A stretch of 64,000 bases of DNA from Alistipes sp. (GTDB lineage Bacteria; Bacteroidota; Bacteroidia; Bacteroidales; Rikenellaceae): positions 1 to 64,000 of the forward strand of contig JAGBVG010000053.1 in NCBI GenBank assembly GCA_017630455.1. The letters run 5' to 3'. The position numbers and the translations under genes were made by a program. A model generated the notes under the pieces. It ran no database searches. It was not told where the DNA came from and was given only the letters and a program-made list of their open reading frames with translations. Below are positions 35,484 to 64,000 of this stretch, piece after piece (within the stretch, counting starts at the first letter, position 1; the number at the start of each line of letters is the position of its first letter).

Positions 35484-35597
35484 GTTTGTGATAAGTGTTA
35501 TGGTTAGAGATGGAGAGTTTTCCCCTCTCCCACCCAGAGCGAAGCGGCTTTACCCAGCCTTACTCTTTCGCAGATGCCCCCTTATCACAACAAAATT
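35484..35597 (-). repeat. Structured intergenic repeat, divergent copy F (pepT-nadE gap)
   Basis: This is a shortened member of the repeat family also seen at 36866, 59933, 60532 and 60660. TTGTGATAAG occurs at both ends in inverted orientation (plus strand TTTGTGATAAG at 35485, and CTTATCACAACAAAATT at 35581). The right end keeps GCAGATGCCCCCTTATCACAACAAAATT. The central stem differs (GAGAGTTTTCCCCTCTC is itself a hairpin). The last two bases are part of the pepT stop codon. Confidence 0.6.
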
Positions 35598-36813
35598 ACT
35601 CTGCCCAGATGCGTGCAAGGTTAATGATAGTGTTCATCGCTTTCTGCATCGTTGTGAGCGACGCATACTCATAACGGCCGTGGAAGTTCATACCTCCGGT
35701 GAAGAGGTTTGGACAAGGGAGACCCATAAATGAGAGACGTGAGCCGTCGGTACCACCACGGATAGGCTTAACAAGAGGCTTAACACCAGCCTCAATCATA
35801 GCCTTCTTAGCCTTCTCGATAACCTGTGGGTGTGGCTCAACCATCTTACGCATATTGTAGTACTGGTCGCGCATAGAGAGTGTCAACACCTTCTCGCCAT
35901 ACTTACGCTGGAGGAAGTTGACAACATCCCACATAAGCTGCTTCTTCTGCTCAAACTTCTCAGAGTCGTGGTCGCGGATGATGTAGCTAATCTCAGCCTC
36001 CTCAACAGAGCCCTTGATGCCTACACAGTGGAAGAAACCCTCGTAGTGCTCGGTGAACTGAGGACGCTGGTCTGCAGGGAGCAGTGCATTAAGCTCACAA
36101 GCGATGTCGATGGCGTTAATCATCTTATTCTTAGCCATACCTGGGTGTACGTTACGACCTGCGATGTTGATCTTTGCACCTGCGGCGTTGAAGTTCTCAT
36201 ACTCCAACTCACCCTCCATACCACCATCCATAGTATATGCGAAGTCGGCAGCGAACTTCTTAACATCGAAGTAGTCTACGCCACGACCAATCTCCTCGTC
36301 GGGTGTGAAGCCCACGCGGATCTTGCCGTGCTTAACCTCTGGGTGCGCCACAAGCCACTCCATAGCTGTTACAATCTCCGCAACGCCAGCCTTGTCATCA
36401 GCGCCGAGAAGCGTTGTGCCGTCGGTGTGAATGAGGGTGTGACCCTTGAAGAATGACAACTCTGGGAACTCCTCAACACGCATCCATACGTCGTTACCAA
36501 GCATAATATCGCGACCGTCGTAGTTCTCCAAGACGTGAGGCTTTACATTCGCGCCACTCATATCTGGAGCGGTGTCGACGTGCGAGATAAAGCCGATAAC
36601 AGGGGCATTCTCCATACCCTTAGATGCTGGGAGCGTAGCCATAACATAGCCATACTCATCCATCGTAACCTCCGTAAGGCCGATAGTCTCGAGTTCCTCC
36701 TTCAGGTGGCGAAGCAACACCTTCTGCTTCTCGGTAGAGGGGAACGTTGTGCTTGACTCATCAGCCTGAGTATCAAACGATACGTATTTCAAAAATCTCT
36801 CTTTCAAGTCCAT
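35596..36813 (-). CDS. pepT: Peptidase T (tripeptide aminopeptidase)
   Basis: The 405-residue M20B metallopeptidase shows FISHVDTAPDMSG (zinc His and the catalytic Asp), TLLGADDKAGVAEI (bridging Asp), PDEEIGRG (catalytic Glu and next ligand) and a closing GGTDGSRLSFMGLPCPNLFTGG. It removes the N-terminal residue of tripeptides in the cytoplasm. Its upstream neighbour is an OPT oligopeptide transporter on the same strand, so import and digestion of peptides may be linked. It is bounded by repeat copies on both sides, copy C before its start and copy F at its stop. Confidence 0.97.
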   Translation of the reverse strand: MDLKERFLKYVSFDTQADESSTTFPSTEKQKVLLRHLKEELETIGLTEVTMDEYGYVMATLPASKGMENAPVIGFISHVDTAPDMSGANVKPHVLENYDGRDIMLGNDVWMRVEEFPELSFFKGHTLIHTDGTTLLGADDKAGVAEIVTAMEWLVAHPEVKHGKIRVGFTPDEEIGRGVDYFDVKKFAADFAYTMDGGMEGELEYENFNAAGAKINIAGRNVHPGMAKNKMINAIDIACELNALLPADQRPQFTEHYEGFFHCVGIKGSVEEAEISYIIRDHDSEKFEQKKQLMWDVVNFLQRKYGEKVLTLSMRDQYYNMRKMVEPHPQVIEKAKKAMIEAGVKPLVKPIRGGTDGSRLSFMGLPCPNLFTGGMNFHGRYEYASLTTMQKAMNTIINLARIWAE

Positions 36814-36865: not shown

Positions 36866-36992
36866 GTTTGTTGTCAGAAGGGGTTAGATACAACGCTCGG
36901 CGAATTTCGAAGCGATGGGCTGTACATTGGCGTACTGCCCATTGCTAAGAATATTCGTTAGCGGCAGTAGATGACCCCTTATCACAACAAAC
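36866..36992 (-). repeat. Structured intergenic repeat, copy C (OPT transporter-pepT gap)
   Basis: A 127-bp copy. Ends are GTTTGTTGT at 36866 and ACAACAAAC at 36992, with a second stem AAGGGGT / ACCCCTT after an internal loop. The core GTTAGATACAACGCTCGGCG and the hairpin CGATGGGCTGTAC / GTACTGCCCATTG are shared with copies A and B. The right end lies 4 nt from the stop codon of the minus-strand OPT gene. Confidence 0.85.
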
Positions 36993-36996
36993 TCAT

Positions 36997-38982
36997 TTAC
37001 TCTTCAATCTTTGCACGTCTCGAGTGCCAGATAAAGTAAGCAATGATCGCTGCATACATAGCAATACCGAGGTAGATAGCACCCATAGAGCCTGCCCAGT
37101 CGGTAAGGACCCAATCGACACCCGCAAACGCAAGGATAGCACTCACAACACCCATCAGCGCACCACCGGCGATGAAGCCCGACGCGATAAGTGTACCACG
37201 GCTATTGTTAGCCTTAGCCTTCTCAGGTGTAGCGTTACGGTTTACTGCCCACGCTACAAGACCACCCACCACCAATGGAGCGTTCAACTCCATAGGGATG
37301 AACATACCGAGTGCGAATGGCAATGCTGGCACCTTCGCAAAGGTAAGGATAAGGGCGATAAGCGCACCAAGACCATACAACGCCCAAGGAGTTGCACCAC
37401 CTGTCATAAGAGGCTTGATAACCGCAGCCATAGCATTTGCCTGTGGTGCTACAAGAGCATTCTCACCCACGAAACCATAGGTATCGTTCATAATGATCAT
37501 AACACCCGCAACGGTAGCTGCCGAAACCGCAGTACCTACGAACTTCCAAGTCTGCTGCTTCTTTGGTGTTGTACCGAGCCAGTAACCCACCTTAAGGTCG
37601 GTGATAAAGCCTCCAGCCATTGAGAGCGCGGTACATACCACACCACCAATTACCAACGCTGCAATCATACCACTTGTACCCTCCAAGCCAATTGACACCA
37701 AAACCAAAGATGAGAGGATAAGTGTCATAAGCGTCATACCCGATACAGGGTTCGAGCCTACGATAGCGATTGCATTAGCAGCAACGGTAGTAAACAAGAA
37801 GGCGATAACGAATACGATAAGCAACGCAATGATAGTCTGGAACCAATTGTGCAACACACCAAACTGGAAGAAGAAGAGTGTTGTAACAAGCACTGCGATG
37901 ATAACTGTCATAATAACCTTCATCGAGATATCGCGCTGTGTACGTGGCTCCTCGACTGCCACCTTCTTACCACCAAGCTCATTCTTTGCCAACGAGAGTG
38001 CCGACTTGATGATACCCGCCTGACGGATGATACCAATAAGACCAGCCATTGCGATACCGCCAATACCGAGTGGACGACCAATCTCGCGGAAGATACCCTC
38101 TGGAGTTGCCAACGCATCGTAGTTGATACCCATAGCAGCGAGTGTATCAGGGAGTGTCGCAGCATCGAACGCTCCGAGGATAGGCGTAACCAAAGGAATA
38201 ACTACAAACCACACAAGAGCCGAGCCGCCGGCGATGATAAGTGCATACTTCAAACCGATGATATAACCGAGACCAAGTACCGCAGCCGAGGTATTGAGAC
38301 CGAATGTCAACTTAGCGTTTGCCGCCAAAGCCTTACCCCAGCCCCACATCTGTGTTGAGAGTGACGACACCCACGCACCAAATGTAGATACGATAAAGTC
38401 GTAGAGACCACCGATAAGACCTGCAGCCACCAAAATCTTAGCCTGCGAGCCACCCTTCTCACCCGACACGAGCACCTCGGTGGTTGCTGTAGCCTCAGGG
38501 AAAGGATACTTGCCGTGCATCTCCTTTACGAAGTACTTGCGGAATGGAATGAGCAACACGATACCGAGGATACCGCCAAGTAGCGACGATAGGAACACCT
38601 GGTAGAACTGTGCGTCGAGACCAAGAATGTAGAGCGCTGGGAGCGTGAAGATAGCACCCGCCACGATAACACCCGACGATGCGCCAATAGACTGAATGAT
38701 AACATTCTGGCCGAGCATATTCTTCTTGCCACGCATCTGGCCAAGACCTACTGCGATAATAGCGATAGGAATAGCAGCCTCGAATACCTGACCTACCTTA
38801 AGTCCGAGGTAAGCCGCAGCAGCCGAGAAGAGAACGGCCATAAGAATACCAATAGACACCGAATAAGGAGTAACCTCCGTAGGAGTCTGCTCTGCACCCA
38901 TAACAGGGTTGTACTGTTCGCCCTCACGAAGCTCGCGATATGCGTTATCGGGGAGCGATGTAATCTGTTGTTTTTCCTGCAT
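36997..38982 (-). CDS. OPT family oligopeptide transporter
   Basis: The 661-residue protein has about 14-16 membrane segments and no signal peptide. It starts with a 35-residue soluble tail ending YNPVMGAEQTPTEVTPYSV, then YLGLKVGQVFEAAIPIAI. HGKYPFPEATATTEVL near residue 155 is a marker of the bacterial OPT/YSL group. It should import peptides or metal-peptide chelates by proton symport. It has a consensus promoter and diverges from valS. pepT follows about 180 nt downstream beyond a repeat copy. Confidence 0.93.
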   Translation of the reverse strand: MQEKQQITSLPDNAYRELREGEQYNPVMGAEQTPTEVTPYSVSIGILMAVLFSAAAAYLGLKVGQVFEAAIPIAIIAVGLGQMRGKKNMLGQNVIIQSIGASSGVIVAGAIFTLPALYILGLDAQFYQVFLSSLLGGILGIVLLIPFRKYFVKEMHGKYPFPEATATTEVLVSGEKGGSQAKILVAAGLIGGLYDFIVSTFGAWVSSLSTQMWGWGKALAANAKLTFGLNTSAAVLGLGYIIGLKYALIIAGGSALVWFVVIPLVTPILGAFDAATLPDTLAAMGINYDALATPEGIFREIGRPLGIGGIAMAGLIGIIRQAGIIKSALSLAKNELGGKKVAVEEPRTQRDISMKVIMTVIIAVLVTTLFFFQFGVLHNWFQTIIALLIVFVIAFLFTTVAANAIAIVGSNPVSGMTLMTLILSSLVLVSIGLEGTSGMIAALVIGGVVCTALSMAGGFITDLKVGYWLGTTPKKQQTWKFVGTAVSAATVAGVMIIMNDTYGFVGENALVAPQANAMAAVIKPLMTGGATPWALYGLGALIALILTFAKVPALPFALGMFIPMELNAPLVVGGLVAWAVNRNATPEKAKANNSRGTLIASGFIAGGALMGVVSAILAFAGVDWVLTDWAGSMGAIYLGIAMYAAIIAYFIWHSRRAKIEE

Positions 38983-46517: not shown

Positions 46518-47231
46518 ATGGCAGGAAAAGTACCTACTCCACACATCGGAGCACAATATGGCGAGATTGCCGATAGAGTGATTATGGCGGGTGATCCTTT
46601 GCGCGCCAAGTTTATGGCCGAGAACTTCTTGGAGAACCCCGTGCAGTATAACAACGTTCGCGGTATGCTCGGATACACAGGAACTTACAAGGGCAAGCGC
46701 GTGTCGGTTCAGGGTCACGGTATGGGCATCCCTTCGATCGGCATCTACTCCTACGAGCTCTTCAACTTCTACGACGTGAAGCGCATCATTCGTTGTGGCT
46801 CGGCAGGTGCTTTCGACCCATCGCTGAACCTCGGTGACGTGGTACTCGGTATGGGTTCGTGCACCGACTCGAACTATGGCGCACAGTTCAACCTCCCTGG
46901 CACATTCTCTCCTATTGCCGACTTTGAGCTTCTCCGCGCTGCAGCAGCCAAGGCCGAGGAGTTGGGCATCGACTATAAGGTGGGTAACATCCTCGCCAGT
47001 GACGTATTCTATGGCGACGACGCCGAGAGCTGGAAGCAGTGGCAGAAGATGGGCGTGCTCGCAGTGGAGATGGAGGCTACGGCACTCTATATGAACGCTG
47101 CACGTGCCGGTAAGAGTGCGCTCTGCATCTGCACCATCTCCGACTCTCTCGTTCACCACACAGCCTGCTCGGCCGAGGAGCGTCAGACGTCGTTTACCAA
47201 TATGATGAAGATTGCCTTTGATATAATTTAA
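46518..47231 (+). CDS. deoD: Purine-nucleoside phosphorylase, hexameric type
   Basis: The 237-residue product shows the DeoD pattern: [27 protein letters not shown] (phosphate site), [24 protein letters not shown] and [10 protein letters not shown]. The last Met-Glu pair contacts the ribose. It cleaves purine nucleosides with phosphate for salvage. It is followed 74 nt later by the GH84 gene, with no terminator that I can see. Confidence 0.97.
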
Positions 47232-47305
47232 TTTTCCGAGATAAGATTACATCTGCAACCCTCTATCGAGAAATTGTAAATGTATCAATTAAACGAACAA
47301 ACTTA

Positions 47306-59819: not shown

Positions 59820-59841
59820 AAAATTCGCCCGAGCGCATAGC

Positions 59842-59932
59842 AACTTTCTTGTCAAGAGGTAGCAGACTCTCAACGTTCGGAAGCGCGAGAAAAGAGTGGT
59901 TCCGACACAACACTCGAAAGCGGTCGAACCCT
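59842..59932 (-). repeat. Structured repeat remnant, copy E
   Basis: It begins AACTTTCTTGTCAAGAGGTAGCAG, like the left end of copy D, and keeps an AACGTTCGG segment. It lacks the right arm and runs straight into copy D. Confidence 0.45.
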
Positions 59933-60060
59933 AATTTCTTGTCAGAAGGTAGCAGATACAATGCTCGGCAAAAATGCCACCGATGGGTAGTACTTGGGGT
60001 ACGTCCCATTGGTGGCACTTTTTGTTAGCAGCCGTAGATGCTGCCTTATCACAAGAAATT
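59933..60060 (-). repeat. Structured intergenic repeat, copy D (at the dCMP deaminase stop codon)
   Basis: A 128-bp copy with 10-bp ends AATTTCTTGT / ACAAGAAATT and inner stem AAGGTAG / CTGCCTT. The central hairpin is GCCACCGATGGG / CCCATTGGTGGC, longer than in other copies but with paired changes. The last two bases belong to the deaminase stop codon (60059-60061). Confidence 0.85.
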
Positions 60061-60490
60061 ACTCTATGGGAAGGTGAACACACTCGATTCCTACCCTACG
60101 AAGAAGATCGAGACCCTCCTCAAGACGATATGAGTCGCTGTATACCACGCGCTTGATACCCGCCTGGATGATAAGCTTGGCGCACTCTATGCAGGGCGAT
60201 GCGGTGATATAGAGAGTTGAGCCATCACAGTTATTGGCACTCTTGGCAACCTTGGTAATGGCATTAGCCTCAGCGTGGAGGACGTAGGGTTTTGTCTTGC
60301 CCATATCATCCTCACAGATATTCTCGAAGCCCGCAGGGGTGCCGTTGTAGCCGTCGGAGATAATCATATTATCCTTGACAATCAGCGCACCGACCTTGCG
60401 ACGCACACAGTATGAGTTTTCGGCCCACACGCGCGCCATCTGCAAATATCGAGTGTCGAACTGACGCTGCTTCTGCTCCTTGTATCCCAT
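60059..60490 (-). CDS. Deoxycytidylate (dCMP) deaminase
   Basis: The 143-residue zinc enzyme has VLHAEANAITKVA (zinc His and catalytic Glu) and SPCIECAKLIIQAGIKRVVY (two zinc Cys). It converts dCMP to dUMP for thymidylate synthesis. It is close to the ComEB-type deaminases of Firmicutes. secA precedes it on the same strand, with two repeat copies between, and its stop codon is continuous with copy D. Confidence 0.93.
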   Translation of the reverse strand: MGYKEQKQRQFDTRYLQMARVWAENSYCVRRKVGALIVKDNMIISDGYNGTPAGFENICEDDMGKTKPYVLHAEANAITKVAKSANNCDGSTLYITASPCIECAKLIIQAGIKRVVYSDSYRLEEGLDLLRRVGIECVHLPIE

Positions 60491-60531
60491 TTGTCAAATT
60501 CTAATTGTTTACTTTAATCAGCCCTCAGCCA

Positions 60532-60659
60532 AATTTCTTGTTAGAAGTGGTTAGATACAACGCTCGGCGAATTTCGAAGCGATGGGCTGTACTTGGCGTA
60601 CTGCCCATTGCTGAGATAATCCGTTAGCGACAGTAGATGACCACTTATCTCAATGGTCT
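60532..60659 (-). repeat. Structured intergenic repeat, copy A of a tandem pair
   Basis: A 128-bp unit nearly identical to copy B next to it; the visible differences are GCGACA versus GCGGCA and the last 15 bases (CTCAATGGTCT instead of CACAAGAAATT). The loss of the right inverted end suggests a duplication junction. Confidence 0.85.
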
Positions 60660-60787
60660 AATTTCTTGTTAGAAGTGGTTAGATACAACGCTCGGCGAAT
60701 TTCGAAGCGATGGGCTGTACTTGGCGTACTGCCCATTGCTGAGATAATCCGTTAGCGGCAGTAGATGACCACTTATCACAAGAAATT
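60660..60787 (-). repeat. Structured intergenic repeat, copy B (at the secA stop codon)
   Basis: A 128-bp unit with 10-bp ends AATTTCTTGT / ACAAGAAATT and inner stem AAGTGGT / ACCACTT after a 3-by-3 loop. The central hairpin GCGATGGGCTGTAC / GTACTGCCCATTGC has one wobble and one mismatch. Its last two bases are part of the secA stop codon (60786-60788). Confidence 0.9.
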
Positions 60788-63700
60788 ACATCTTGCCGTG
60801 GCAGTGCTTATACTTCTTGCCCGAACCACAAGGACAAGGGTCGTTACGTCCGACACTCTTGTCGACCTTGATAGGCGCAGTCTTGCCACGCTCACCCTGA
60901 CCTGCAGCCGCTGCAGCCGCCATACGTGATGCTTGAAGCTTGTTGACATCGATCTTCGACTTCTGCTCGCGAGCCTGCTCCATACTCTGGCTGCTCTCGC
61001 GGATGTCGAGGTATACTTTATTCAAGAGAGCCAAGACATCGCGGTTGATATCCTCAAGCATCTTTGAGAAGAGCTGGAACGACTCGAGCTTGTAGATAAG
61101 GAGTGGGTCCTTCTGCTCGTATGTAGCATTCTGAACGCTCTGACGGAGGTCATCCATCTCGCGGAGGTGCTCACGCCAAGCATCGTCGATAGTGGTGAAC
61201 AACGCCACCTTGGCAAATACGCGGTATACCTCCATACAGTCGGTATCCTTACACTTCTGCATCTCCACAGGGAGCGAGTAACGCAAGCGGCCATCGGTGA
61301 ATGGGAATGCCAAACGTGCCGACATATTATTCTCAAACTGCGCGTAGTAACGCTCCATATTCGGACGAAGGATATCGGCAATAGCCTTAGCCTTACGCTC
61401 GTAGAGGTCTGTGAGATCCTTGACGATAGCCTCGATAAGCTCCTGAGGCTTCATCTTGTTATACTGCTCCTCGATGAGAGTGGTGTCGAGAGTCACCTCG
61501 CGCAACAGGTCTAACTTGAAATCCTCGAACGCGCAACCCTCGTGAGCCTCCACGAACTTGATAGCATAGTCGTAACGGAGGTTGTTGAGATCGATATCGA
61601 TACGCTCGCCATAGAGTGCGTGACGACGACGTGTGTAGATAACCTCACGCTGCGAGTTCATAACATCGTCATACTCCAACAAACGCTTACGAACGCCAAA
61701 GTGGTTCTCCTCCACCTTCTTCTGCGCACGCTCGATAGACTTGGTCATCATACCAGCCTGGATAACCTCACCCTCCTGGATGCCCATCTTATCCATAAGC
61801 GATGCGATGCGGTCCGAGCCAAAGAGGCGCATAAGCTTATCCTCCAACGATACGAAGAACTGTGAAGAACCTGGATCACCCTGACGTCCTGCACGACCAC
61901 GCAACTGACGGTCTACACGACGGCTCTCGTGGCGCTCAGTACCGATGATGGCAAGACCACCCTTCTCCTTAACCTCCTGAGTAAGTTTGATATCCGTACC
62001 ACGTCCCGCCATATTGGTAGCGATGGTAACCTGACCACTGCGACCCGCCTCAGCAACGATCTGCGCCTCGAGCTGGTGCTGCTTAGCGTTCAGCACATTA
62101 TGCTTGATACCGCGAATCTTGAGCATACGGCTGAGCAACTCCGAGATCTCCACCGATGTGGTACCCACCAACACTGGACGACCCTCGGCAACGAGCTTCT
62201 CGATCTCGGCAATCACCGCATTATACTTCTCGCGCTCGGTCTTATATACCAAATCCTCGCGGTCGTCACGGATAACCTTCTTATTTGTAGGGATTACCAC
62301 AACATCGAGCTTGTAGATACTCCAGAACTCCGAAGCCTCGGTTTCTGCTGTACCTGTCATACCCGCCAACTTGTGGTACATACGGAAGTAGTTCTGAAGG
62401 GTAATGGTTGCAAAGGTCTGCGTAGCATCCTCCACCTTCACACTCTCCTTGGCCTCGATAGCCTGGTGCAAACCATCGGAGTAGCGACGGCCCTCCATAA
62501 TACGGCCTGTCTGCTCGTCGACGATCTTAACCTTGTTATCAATAAGCACATACTCCACCTCCTTCTCGAACATAAAGTATGCCTTGAGGAGCTGGTTCAT
62601 AGTGTGCACACGCTCCGCCTTTACAGAGTACTCCGAGAGTAGCTCATCCTTCTTCTGCGCGCGCTCCTCGTGCGAAAGCTCCTTATTCTGCTCGAGCTCG
62701 GCAATACGCGCGCCGATATCTGGAAGCACGAAGAAACCCTCCTCACCAAAACGCTTCGAAGCCACCTCGTGACCCTTATCGGTAAGGATCAAAGAGTTCA
62801 TCTTCTCGTCGTGAACAACAAAGTTGTCGTCGGTAATCTCTGGCATACGGCGCTCGTTGTCCTGCATATAGATATTCTCGATCTTCTGCAAGAGAACCTT
62901 AACACCTGGCTCAGAGAGGAACTTGATGAGAGCCTTGTACTTTGGCATAGCCTTGTGAGCGCGGAGCAACAGTTTACCTGCCTCCTCCATCTGACCCTCG
63001 TTGTAGAGACGCTTAGCCTCGGCAACATCCGACGACGACATCTTGCTCTGAAGGTCGTAGATATACTTCGCAGCAGGCTGATACTCGGCAAAGAGCTGGT
63101 CGCCACCCTTTGGCACAGGACCAGAGATGATAAGCGGCGTACGTGCATCGTCAATCAACACCGAGTCGACCTCATCGACAATGGCGTAGTGATGCTTGCG
63201 CTGCACGAGATCCTTTGGCTGCGATGCCATATTGTCACGCAAGTAGTCAAAACCAAACTCGTTGTTTGTACCGAAGGTAATATCAGACATATATGCCTTG
63301 CGACGCTCTGCAGAGTTAGGGCGAGTGTTGTCGATACAAGCCACCGACAAGCCGTGGAACTGATACATAGGACCCATCCACTCGGCATCACGACGTGCGA
63401 GGTAGTCGTTCACTGTCACCACGTGCACACCCTTATGTGCCAAGGCATTGAGGAATACAGGGAGTGTTGCCACAAGGGTCTTACCCTCACCCGTAGCCAT
63501 CTCGGCAATACGACCCTTATGCAGTGCCACACCACCAAAGAGCTGTACGTCATAGTGTACCATATCCCACTTGATAACATTACCACCGGCAGTCCACTGC
63601 GAGCTATAGATAGCCTTGTCATCCTCAATACGCACCAAATCGCCACGCTCGGCAGCGAGGTTACGGTCGAAGTCATTTGCCGTTACCACCACCTCGTCAT

Positions 63701-64000
63701 TCTCGGCAAAGCGGCGCGCCGTGTCCTTCATAATTGCGAAAGCCTCGGGAAGAATCTCCTCGAGTTTCTGCTCGATCTTCTGATCGATGCGCTTTGTGGT
63801 CTCGTCTATCTCCTTTGAGATACGCTCCTTATCCTTTAGCGAGGTCTCAGGGAGCTCCAGACGCTGCTTATTCTCCACAATGCTCTTCTCGTCCTCGGCG
63901 ATGAAGTCGGCAATAGACTGGCTGAGCGCCTTAGAACGAGCACGCAACTCGTCGTTTGAGAGTGCTGATATCGAAGGGTATACAGCCTTAACTTTCTCGA
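60786..64000 (-). CDS. secA: Preprotein translocase ATPase SecA (N-terminus outside window)
   Basis: The frame stays open to the window edge, giving at least 1071 residues. Motifs include Walker [14 protein letters not shown], the DEAD-type [36 protein letters not shown] and [26 protein letters not shown], and a C-terminal zinc motif [15 protein letters not shown]. SecA drives Sec-dependent export, which the many exported proteins here require. The large size with an insertion between the nucleotide-binding halves (about residues 290-450) is usual for Bacteroidota SecA. The residue at 63947 is a TTG Leu codon inside the gene, not a start. Confidence 0.97.

What the first reader, a model, noticed from the sequence alone, without database searches (positions are those of the whole stretch)
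59842..60787. Family of about 128-bp structured repeats with covarying stems
Copies at 36866-36992, 59933-60060, 60532-60659 and 60660-60787, a divergent one at 35484-35597 and a remnant at 59842-59932 share one plan. They have 9-10 bp inverted ends (AATTTCTTGT), a 3-by-3 internal loop, a 7-bp inner stem, the core GATACAACGCTCGG (or close to it), and a central hairpin. The stems change in a paired way: the inner stem is AAGTGGT/ACCACTT in B, AAGGTAG/CTGCCTT in D and AAGGGGT/ACCCCTT in C. The central hairpin gains GCCACC/GGTGGC in D. That is what selection on a folded RNA or hairpin DNA looks like. I recognise no named family. It could be a MITE or REP-type mobile unit, or a 3'-UTR regulatory or terminator RNA.
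Basis: partly seen in the sequence, partly recalled or inferred. Interest (0 to 1): 0.75.

Follow-up and report, generated by a model that had tools for sequence, protein, structure and literature searches.

The report
Stop-codon-anchored hairpin repeats in Alistipes
Gut bacteria of the genus Alistipes carry dozens of about 128-base DNA hairpins that sit right at the stop codons of ordinary genes, nearly always the same way round, which suggests a mobile element with an unusual way of choosing where to land.

Summary
The repeats are real and belong to a large superfamily. A covariance model from 20 own copies finds 63 places in the own-genome sequence held (host: an Alistipes MAG). It matches 61 of 101 genus genomes but 2 of 198 in the order, own included. 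Covariation is strong: 25 of 46 pairs change on both sides.

One end abuts a gene's stop codon with fixed polarity: 49 of 56 own arrays and 27 of 32 in relative G040, against 8.1% for random intergenic edges; the other end does so in 1 of 56 and 2 of 32. Neighbours include core genes (secA, pepT). Orientation is coherent along contigs, apparently on leading-strand genes. The strand antisense to the gene folds better in 106 of 108 copies, so the gene's mRNA carries the worse folder. Orthologous sites are empty, occupied, or hold other classes.

No target duplication, own-genome Y1 transposase or integron integrase was found. Best reading: a non-autonomous mobile hairpin with a single-stranded intermediate; enzyme and targeting unknown.

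The parts
60660..60787 (+). full element, inner copy of a tandem pair; near (right) end overlaps the secA stop codon TAA (complement of 60786-60788)
60532..60659 (+). outer copy of the tandem pair; its near arm no longer pairs (4 of 10 matches)
59933..60060 (+). full element; near end overlaps the stop codon TAA of the cytidine/deoxycytidylate deaminase-family gene 60059-60490(-)
36866..36992 (+). full element; near end 4 nt after the stop codon of the OPT-transporter gene 36997-38982(-)
35570..35597 (+). near-end remnant of an element at the stop codon of the M20 peptidase (pepT-like) gene 35596-36813(-); intact elements lie here in G021 and five other relatives
47230..47275 (-). 46-nt mini-copy lacking the central part, at the stop codon of the phosphorylase-family gene 46518-47231(+)
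59842..59932 (+). probable remnant of the half far from the gene of an older element, outside the copy at 59933
   Evidence: by eye; not hit by the model
60786..63947 (-). secA, neighbour gene whose stop codon the element abuts
60059..60490 (-). cytidine/deoxycytidylate deaminase-family gene, neighbour
36997..38982 (-). OPT oligopeptide transporter gene, neighbour
35596..36813 (-). M20 peptidase gene (pepT-like), neighbour

Best explanation
A superfamily of non-autonomous mobile hairpins of about 128 bp that become established directly at the stop codons of Alistipes genes, in one polarity, and mostly on genes of one strand per contig (apparently the leading strand). Shown: the shared geometry, covariation, stop-codon anchoring, polarity, strand coherence, better folding of the strand antisense to the gene, and turnover between species. 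Inferred: each copy spreads through a single-stranded intermediate (ssDNA or RNA) of the antisense sequence, folded and recognised by an unidentified factor through the conserved internal loops and the length of the stems; the 10-bp outer stem joins the host's gene end (near arm) to a complementary far arm, so pairing or copying of the target is part of the insertion or of its later repair. Landing just after a stop codon spares the gene, and a minority of classes may also end transcripts. The enzyme, and how a stop codon is found, are unknown.
For: Geometry: 60 of 63 distinct own copies are 123-132 nt (others 46, 64 and 115); 47 of 47 distinct G040 copies are 120-132 nt; six divergent copies refolded with z -9.5 to -13.2. 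Covariation. Single-strand selection: G.T 249 against A.C 32 cells over 63 own rows; antisense strand more stable in 59 of 61 own and 47 of 47 G040 copies with RNA parameters, 60 of 61 and 47 of 47 with DNA parameters. Anchoring: near edge within 16 nt of a stop in 49 of 56 own arrays (35 of 56 within 1 nt) and 27 of 32 G040 arrays; far edge 1 of 56 and 2 of 32; null 585 of 7200 (35 of 7200 within 1 nt). TAA, TAG and TGA are all used. Strand coherence: 45 of 49 own arrays on 14 contigs, 63 of 69 G040 arrays; G040 sample 29 of 32, P 0.0008 given the gene strands. Turnover: secA, 17 loci L029-L045: 7 with a model hit at the stop, 1 broken copy, 1 other hairpin family, 8 empty; pepT, 18 relatives: 6 full copies of differing classes, 2 degenerate, 10 none, by eye; locus L127: different elements at one stop in own, G144, G021 and G143. 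Outer stem: arms match at 79-97% per position inside 10 bp and 19-36% outside, 108 copies; near arm deviates by 2 or more from consensus in 30 of 63 own copies, far arm too in 28 of these. At L024 the near arm AACTTGTAAT is the host's own Asn-Leu-stop, present in four empty relatives as AACTTGTAAT (L161, L173, L253) or AACCTCTAAT (L190), and the far arm is its near-perfect complement.
Against: No mobilising gene was found: Y1 0 of 1 own and 1 of 101; integron integrase over cut-off 0 of 101; RT in 11 of 34 element-rich genomes and 22 of the other 67. No target duplication of 3-7 nt, so insertion is inferred from presence/absence only. Most near arms carry the consensus AATTTSTTGT, so the near arm cannot be host sequence in general. 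Element-provided stops (TGA or TAA in GTGATAAG, offsets 8-14) count as anchored in some arrays: 5 of 49 own, 6 of 27 G040. Some copies have no stop nearby (7 of 56 own, 5 of 32 G040), several in a composite with another hairpin family. In the own genome one copy of translation factor gene tsf bears an element, but in G040 tsf lies on the strand opposite to the element-bearing genes, against the leading-strand reading.
Confidence: 0.5

Rival explanations
1. Functional 3'-end modules: hairpins kept at stop codons because they end or stabilise the gene's mRNA, copied between genes by recombination rather than by transposition.
For: Exact position behind stops; terminator-like hairpin plus T-run in gene sense in 20 of 61 copies against 10 of 61 in the other sense; element-bearing genes have more C-ending codons than other genes on the same strand (0.647 against 0.562, p 4e-5), as highly used genes might; many palindromic candidates in gut Bacteroidetes were predicted as terminators (PMC8040213, section 8).
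Against: The mRNA carries the strand that folds worse in 106 of 108 copies; 41 of 61 copies lack a T-run terminator by the crude scan; at L024 the next start codon lies about 20 nt beyond the far end, so full termination there is doubtful; strand coherence is not predicted.
Confidence: 0.22
2. An attC-like system: hairpin sites recombined as the folded bottom strand by a tyrosine recombinase, so that gene plus hairpin behaves like a cassette.
For: Recalled features of attC: imperfect palindrome just behind a stop codon, fixed orientation to the gene, non-coding strand folded, structure more conserved than sequence. The same features are seen here.
Against: No integron integrase over the curated cut-off in 101 genomes (lower matches are general tyrosine recombinases, present in all 101). 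Hosts looked at are core genes such as secA and pepT at syntenic places, and the hairpin is gained without the gene moving.
Confidence: 0.08
3. mRNA-primed insertion: mRNA ends made at the stop codon of leading-strand genes prime copying of a folded element RNA or ssDNA, for instance after a co-directional collision of replisome and RNA polymerase.
For: Would explain stop codon, polarity and strand at once. Replisomes are thought to use mRNA as primer in co-directional collisions (PMC8464059, abstract in a listing).
Against: No direct evidence; no RT association; the leading-strand assignment rests on skews and one marker disagrees.
Confidence: 0.1
4. REP/RAYT or IS200/IS605-type element moved by a Y1 transposase.
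For: Intergenic palindromes with G.T pairs; REP ends often provide a TAG stop (PMC3733652, passages).
Against: No Y1 domain in the own genome, 1 of 101 in the genus; about 128 nt rather than 20-40; no GTAG/CGTC terminal tag; all three stop codons used.
Confidence: 0.04

Closest known systems
REP elements with RAYT (GTAG- and CGTC-tagged palindromes)
   Same: Many intergenic palindromes per genome, preferentially downstream of genes, G.T pairs in stems, ends sometimes providing a stop codon (PMC3733652, passages)
   Different: About 128 nt with several fixed internal loops; any of the three stop codons; one polarity; no Y1 transposase
ERIC/RU-1 (127 bp) and similar enterobacterial intergenic repeats
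   Same: Size and imperfect palindrome; considered mobile (PMC2759123, abstract start in a listing; rest recalled)
   Different: Not compared by sequence here; fixed polarity at stop codons is not a feature I recall for ERIC
Integron attC sites
   Same: Structure over sequence, behind the stop codon, bottom strand folded (recalled)
   Different: No integron integrase over cut-off in 101 genomes; core genes at syntenic places
MITEs (for example BrickBuilt elements of Porphyromonas, named in PMC5771137, passages)
   Same: Short, non-coding, dispersed, inverted ends
   Different: Inverted ends vary copy by copy in pairs; no target duplication; no parent transposon found
Palindromic candidate structured RNAs of Bacteroidetes such as HMP2_4205 (132 bp)
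   Same: Size, palindrome, Bacteroidetes (PMC8040213, section 8)
   Different: Sequence not available to me (supplements not readable), so identity is untested; there read as terminators

Membership tests
REP/RAYT | Y1 tyrosine transposase in the genome | tested here: not met
   0 of 1 own, 1 of 101 genus genomes; own MAG is about 90% complete
REP/RAYT | 20-40 bp unit with GTAG or CGTC tag at one end | tested here: not met
   units mostly 123-132 nt; ends are AATTTSTTGT-like
DNA-transposon MITE | target-site duplication | tested here: not met
   direct repeats of 3-7 nt at the ends no more frequent than in shuffles, 63 elements
DNA-transposon MITE | constant terminal inverted repeats shared with a parent transposon | tested here: inconclusive
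   end-motif search found no pair of ends around a gene in the own genome, but the motif matches only one arm class; arms vary copy by copy
Integron attC | integron integrase | tested here: not met
   TIGR02249 over cut-off in 0 of 101 genomes
Integron attC | R and L boxes with GTT crossover triplet at the base of the hairpin | not tested
   ends read by eye do not look like GTTRRRY/RYYYAAC (recalled motif)
Rfam families | score above gathering | tested here: not met
   whole window: one tRNA only; 59820-60800 at E<=5: two chance-level matches
Rho-independent terminators | hairpin followed by T-run in gene sense | tested here: inconclusive
   20 of 61 own copies by a crude rule
ERIC | conserved ERIC core sequence | not tested
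   no sequence comparison made

The most novel reading that the evidence does not exclude
A mobile nucleic acid that finds genes by their translation stop codon: a folded antisense strand is installed exactly behind stops of leading-strand genes by a process coupled to translation, transcription or replication (for example mRNA-primed copying), with the far arm of its outer stem written as the complement of the host's gene end. That would be a new targeting principle for mobile DNA and a natural model for how hairpin sites such as attC first became joined to genes.
Probability: 0.2. Interest if true: 0.95.

Novelty: new variant of a known kind. Interest (0 to 1): 0.8.

Why it matters
Known intergenic palindromes sit near genes but are not known to me to be fixed to the stop codon in one polarity and along one strand of each contig. 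If insertion itself is stop-codon directed, mobile DNA can sense reading frames, which needs a link to translation or mRNA. It would also make testable how structured sites become joined to gene ends, an open question for integron cassettes (recalled). The superfamily is abundant (92 places in one 2.1-Mb relative at E<=1e-6) and changes gene 3' ends, once including the last codon of secA.

Tried and rejected
RAYT/IS200, integron integrase and RT association (RT in 11 of 34 genomes with 20 or more matches, 22 of the other 67; match numbers are capped) gave no mobiliser. A pair of end motifs around a gene (autonomous copy) was not found in the own genome: one search gave 52 matches of AATTTSTTGTNA; the ones outside known copies that I read were chance or truncated copies. 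Viral contigs: 3 exact 16-mer matches, all chance by eye. Plasmids: one blastn query, no match. Rfam: nothing. Target motif: the last 15 nt before the stop show excess C at -7 and -4 (third codon positions) and weak differences at -12 and -1, with controls that include doubtful ORFs; I read this as codon usage, not a motif. Ribosomal-type markers for strand assignment gave 2 motif hits that disagree; tRNAs 1 in the window and 2 in 18 stretches, not used. RNA models R2 and R3, structure prediction and fold search were not used: no protein is involved.

Full report
What is there. The window lies in an Alistipes MAG: the best secA relatives among named genomes are Alistipes from ruminant gut, up to 97% identical. 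A covariance model from 20 own copies finds, in 221,318 bases held from the own genome, 113 rows on both strands, which I merged to 63 places. It matches 61 of 101 genus genomes at E<=0.001, 92 merged places in relative G040 at E<=1e-6, and 2 of 198 genomes of the order, own included. The second is G292, of another family, with divergent copies.

Structure. On 20 copies, 96.5% of cells pair and 25 of 46 pairs have changes on both sides; slid controls pair 34-54%. Several sequence classes share one plan: a 10-bp outer stem, a 3x3 loop, a 9-bp stem, a 2x2 loop with AGAU opposite AGAU, variable stems, and an apical hairpin closed by GUAC/GUAC or a like stem. Length is nearly fixed: 60 of 63 distinct own copies are 123-132 nt, the others 46, 64 and 115; 47 of 47 distinct G040 copies are 120-132 nt. 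Two of the short copies are mini-copies that lack the middle (window 47230-47275 and L115).

One strand is selected. With the element drawn so that the neighbouring gene is antisense, G.T pairs outnumber A.C pairs 249 to 32 in 63 own rows. That strand folds better in 59 of 61 own and 47 of 47 G040 copies with RNA parameters, and in 60 of 61 and 47 of 47 with DNA parameters. The model itself was built on that strand, so orientation by score is partly circular; the agreement with gene polarity (next paragraph) is not. The gene's own mRNA therefore carries the weaker folder. This favours a single-stranded antisense intermediate over a 3'-UTR function as the thing selected.

Stop-codon anchoring. 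In 49 of 56 own arrays a gene's stop codon lies within 16 nt of the same ('near') edge, in 35 of 56 within 1 nt; the far edge has one in 1 of 56. In 18 stretches of 20 kb from G040, chosen because one search had hits there, the numbers are 27 of 32 and 2 of 32. Random intergenic edges give 585 of 7200 within 16 nt and 35 of 7200 within 1 nt. TAA dominates, but TAG and TGA are used too, and the first two bases of the near arm are then often those of the stop codon. The element itself can supply a stop (GTGATAAG), which accounts for 5 of the 49 own and 6 of the 27 G040 cases (offsets 8-14) and weakens those. In G292 both copies I examined lie at stops, of dnaJ and of an aspartokinase/homoserine dehydrogenase-like gene, named from their translations by eye.

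Strand coherence. Own arrays on contigs with two or more follow the contig majority in 45 of 49; G040 arrays in 63 of 69. Genes do not: for example G040 contig C13 has 49 plus and 51 minus gene calls but 9 to 0 arrays in the sample. Simulation from gene strands gives P 0.0008 for the G040 sample; for the own arrays P is at most 0.0008 for assumed gene-strand fractions up to 0.70. Other genes on the element-bearing strand have fewer C-ending codons (0.562 against 0.677, p 1e-12), and the strand-wise skews are A-rich on the opposite strand in 7 of 7 contigs and C-rich in 6 of 7, which points to the leading strand. One marker, tsf in G040, disagrees. Element-bearing genes are more C-ending than other genes of their strand (0.647, p 4e-5) but not clearly different from all other genes (p 0.08).

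Turnover. At secA, empty relatives end Lys-(Leu/Met)-(Gly/Ala)-stop, while occupied ones end Lys-(Leu/Met) with a TAA at the element's edge, so the last codon is displaced. Among L029-L045, 7 have a model hit at the stop, 1 a broken copy, 1 another hairpin family and 8 are empty. At pepT, 6 of 18 relatives have full copies of differing classes, 2 degenerate ones and 10 none, by eye. At locus L127 own, G144, G021 and G143 carry different elements at the same stop, and the far half of an older copy is left downstream in own and G143. Tandem arrays keep the inner copy at the stop. This fits repeated insertion; replacement of interiors by gene conversion at old sites is not excluded.

The outer stem spans host and element. 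Arms match inside exactly 10 bp and not beyond (79-97% against 19-36% per position, 108 copies), and unusual near arms have matching far arms (28 of 30). At L024 the near arm is the host gene's own Asn-Leu-stop codons, present in empty relatives L161, L173, L253 and, changed, L190; a partial element stands in L263. So at least there the far arm follows the host. Since most near arms are AATTTSTTGT, this is not a general rule of origin; pairing-based repair or targeting are both possible.

What moves it is unknown. Y1 transposase: none in the own genome, 1 of 101 in the genus. Integron integrase over cut-off: 0 of 101. RT: 11 of 34 element-rich against 22 of 67 other genomes. No target duplication of 3-7 nt. 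Plasmids: no match. Viral contigs: only chance matches of one 16-mer.

Literature. Searches for such repeats in Alistipes or at stop codons listed nothing that describes them; coverage is limited to open-licence papers. Nearest are GTAG REPs, whose ends often give a TAG stop and whose stems have GT pairs (PMC3733652, passages), and palindromic structured-RNA candidates of gut Bacteroidetes, one of 132 bp, read there as terminators (PMC8040213, section 8), whose sequences I could not see.

Verdict. A well-supported new superfamily with a striking and quantified placement rule. Mobility is inferred from comparison; the mechanism is open.

Noticed in passing
L033 (secA stop, just after 4644), L254, L259, L260: A second hairpin family (AAAGTTATCTG ... 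GCTCATTTACG/GTAAACTCCGC ... CATCTAACTTTA) also lies close behind stop codons.
   Followed up: partly
L023, L025, L111 (own); L213-L217, L221, L222 (G040): Composite repeat: a class-A element nested in another hairpin family (GAAGTCGTATAACAAGG ...), about 30-45 nt from the stop where one was found.
   Followed up: partly
L142, L143, L153, L154, L191, L194, L253, L255: Long inverted arrays of short units (such as TTAGGGAGTTTAGGGAG, TTAGTAATTAGTAATG, GGGACGATTGGGACC) downstream of genes at sites without the element.
   Followed up: no
L249 1260-1388, L250 178-302 (G292, another family of the order): Divergent elements at dnaJ and aspartokinase-like stops, one with a host-matching outer stem TTAATATTGAT/ATCAATATTAA; the superfamily may be wider than model R1 can see.
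   Followed up: partly
window 47230-47275; L115 1451-1514: Mini-copies of 46 and 64 nt keep the outer stem and stop anchoring but lack the middle.
   Followed up: no
own genome contig C68:12047-12658: One reverse transcriptase domain in the own genome, not identified further.
   Followed up: no
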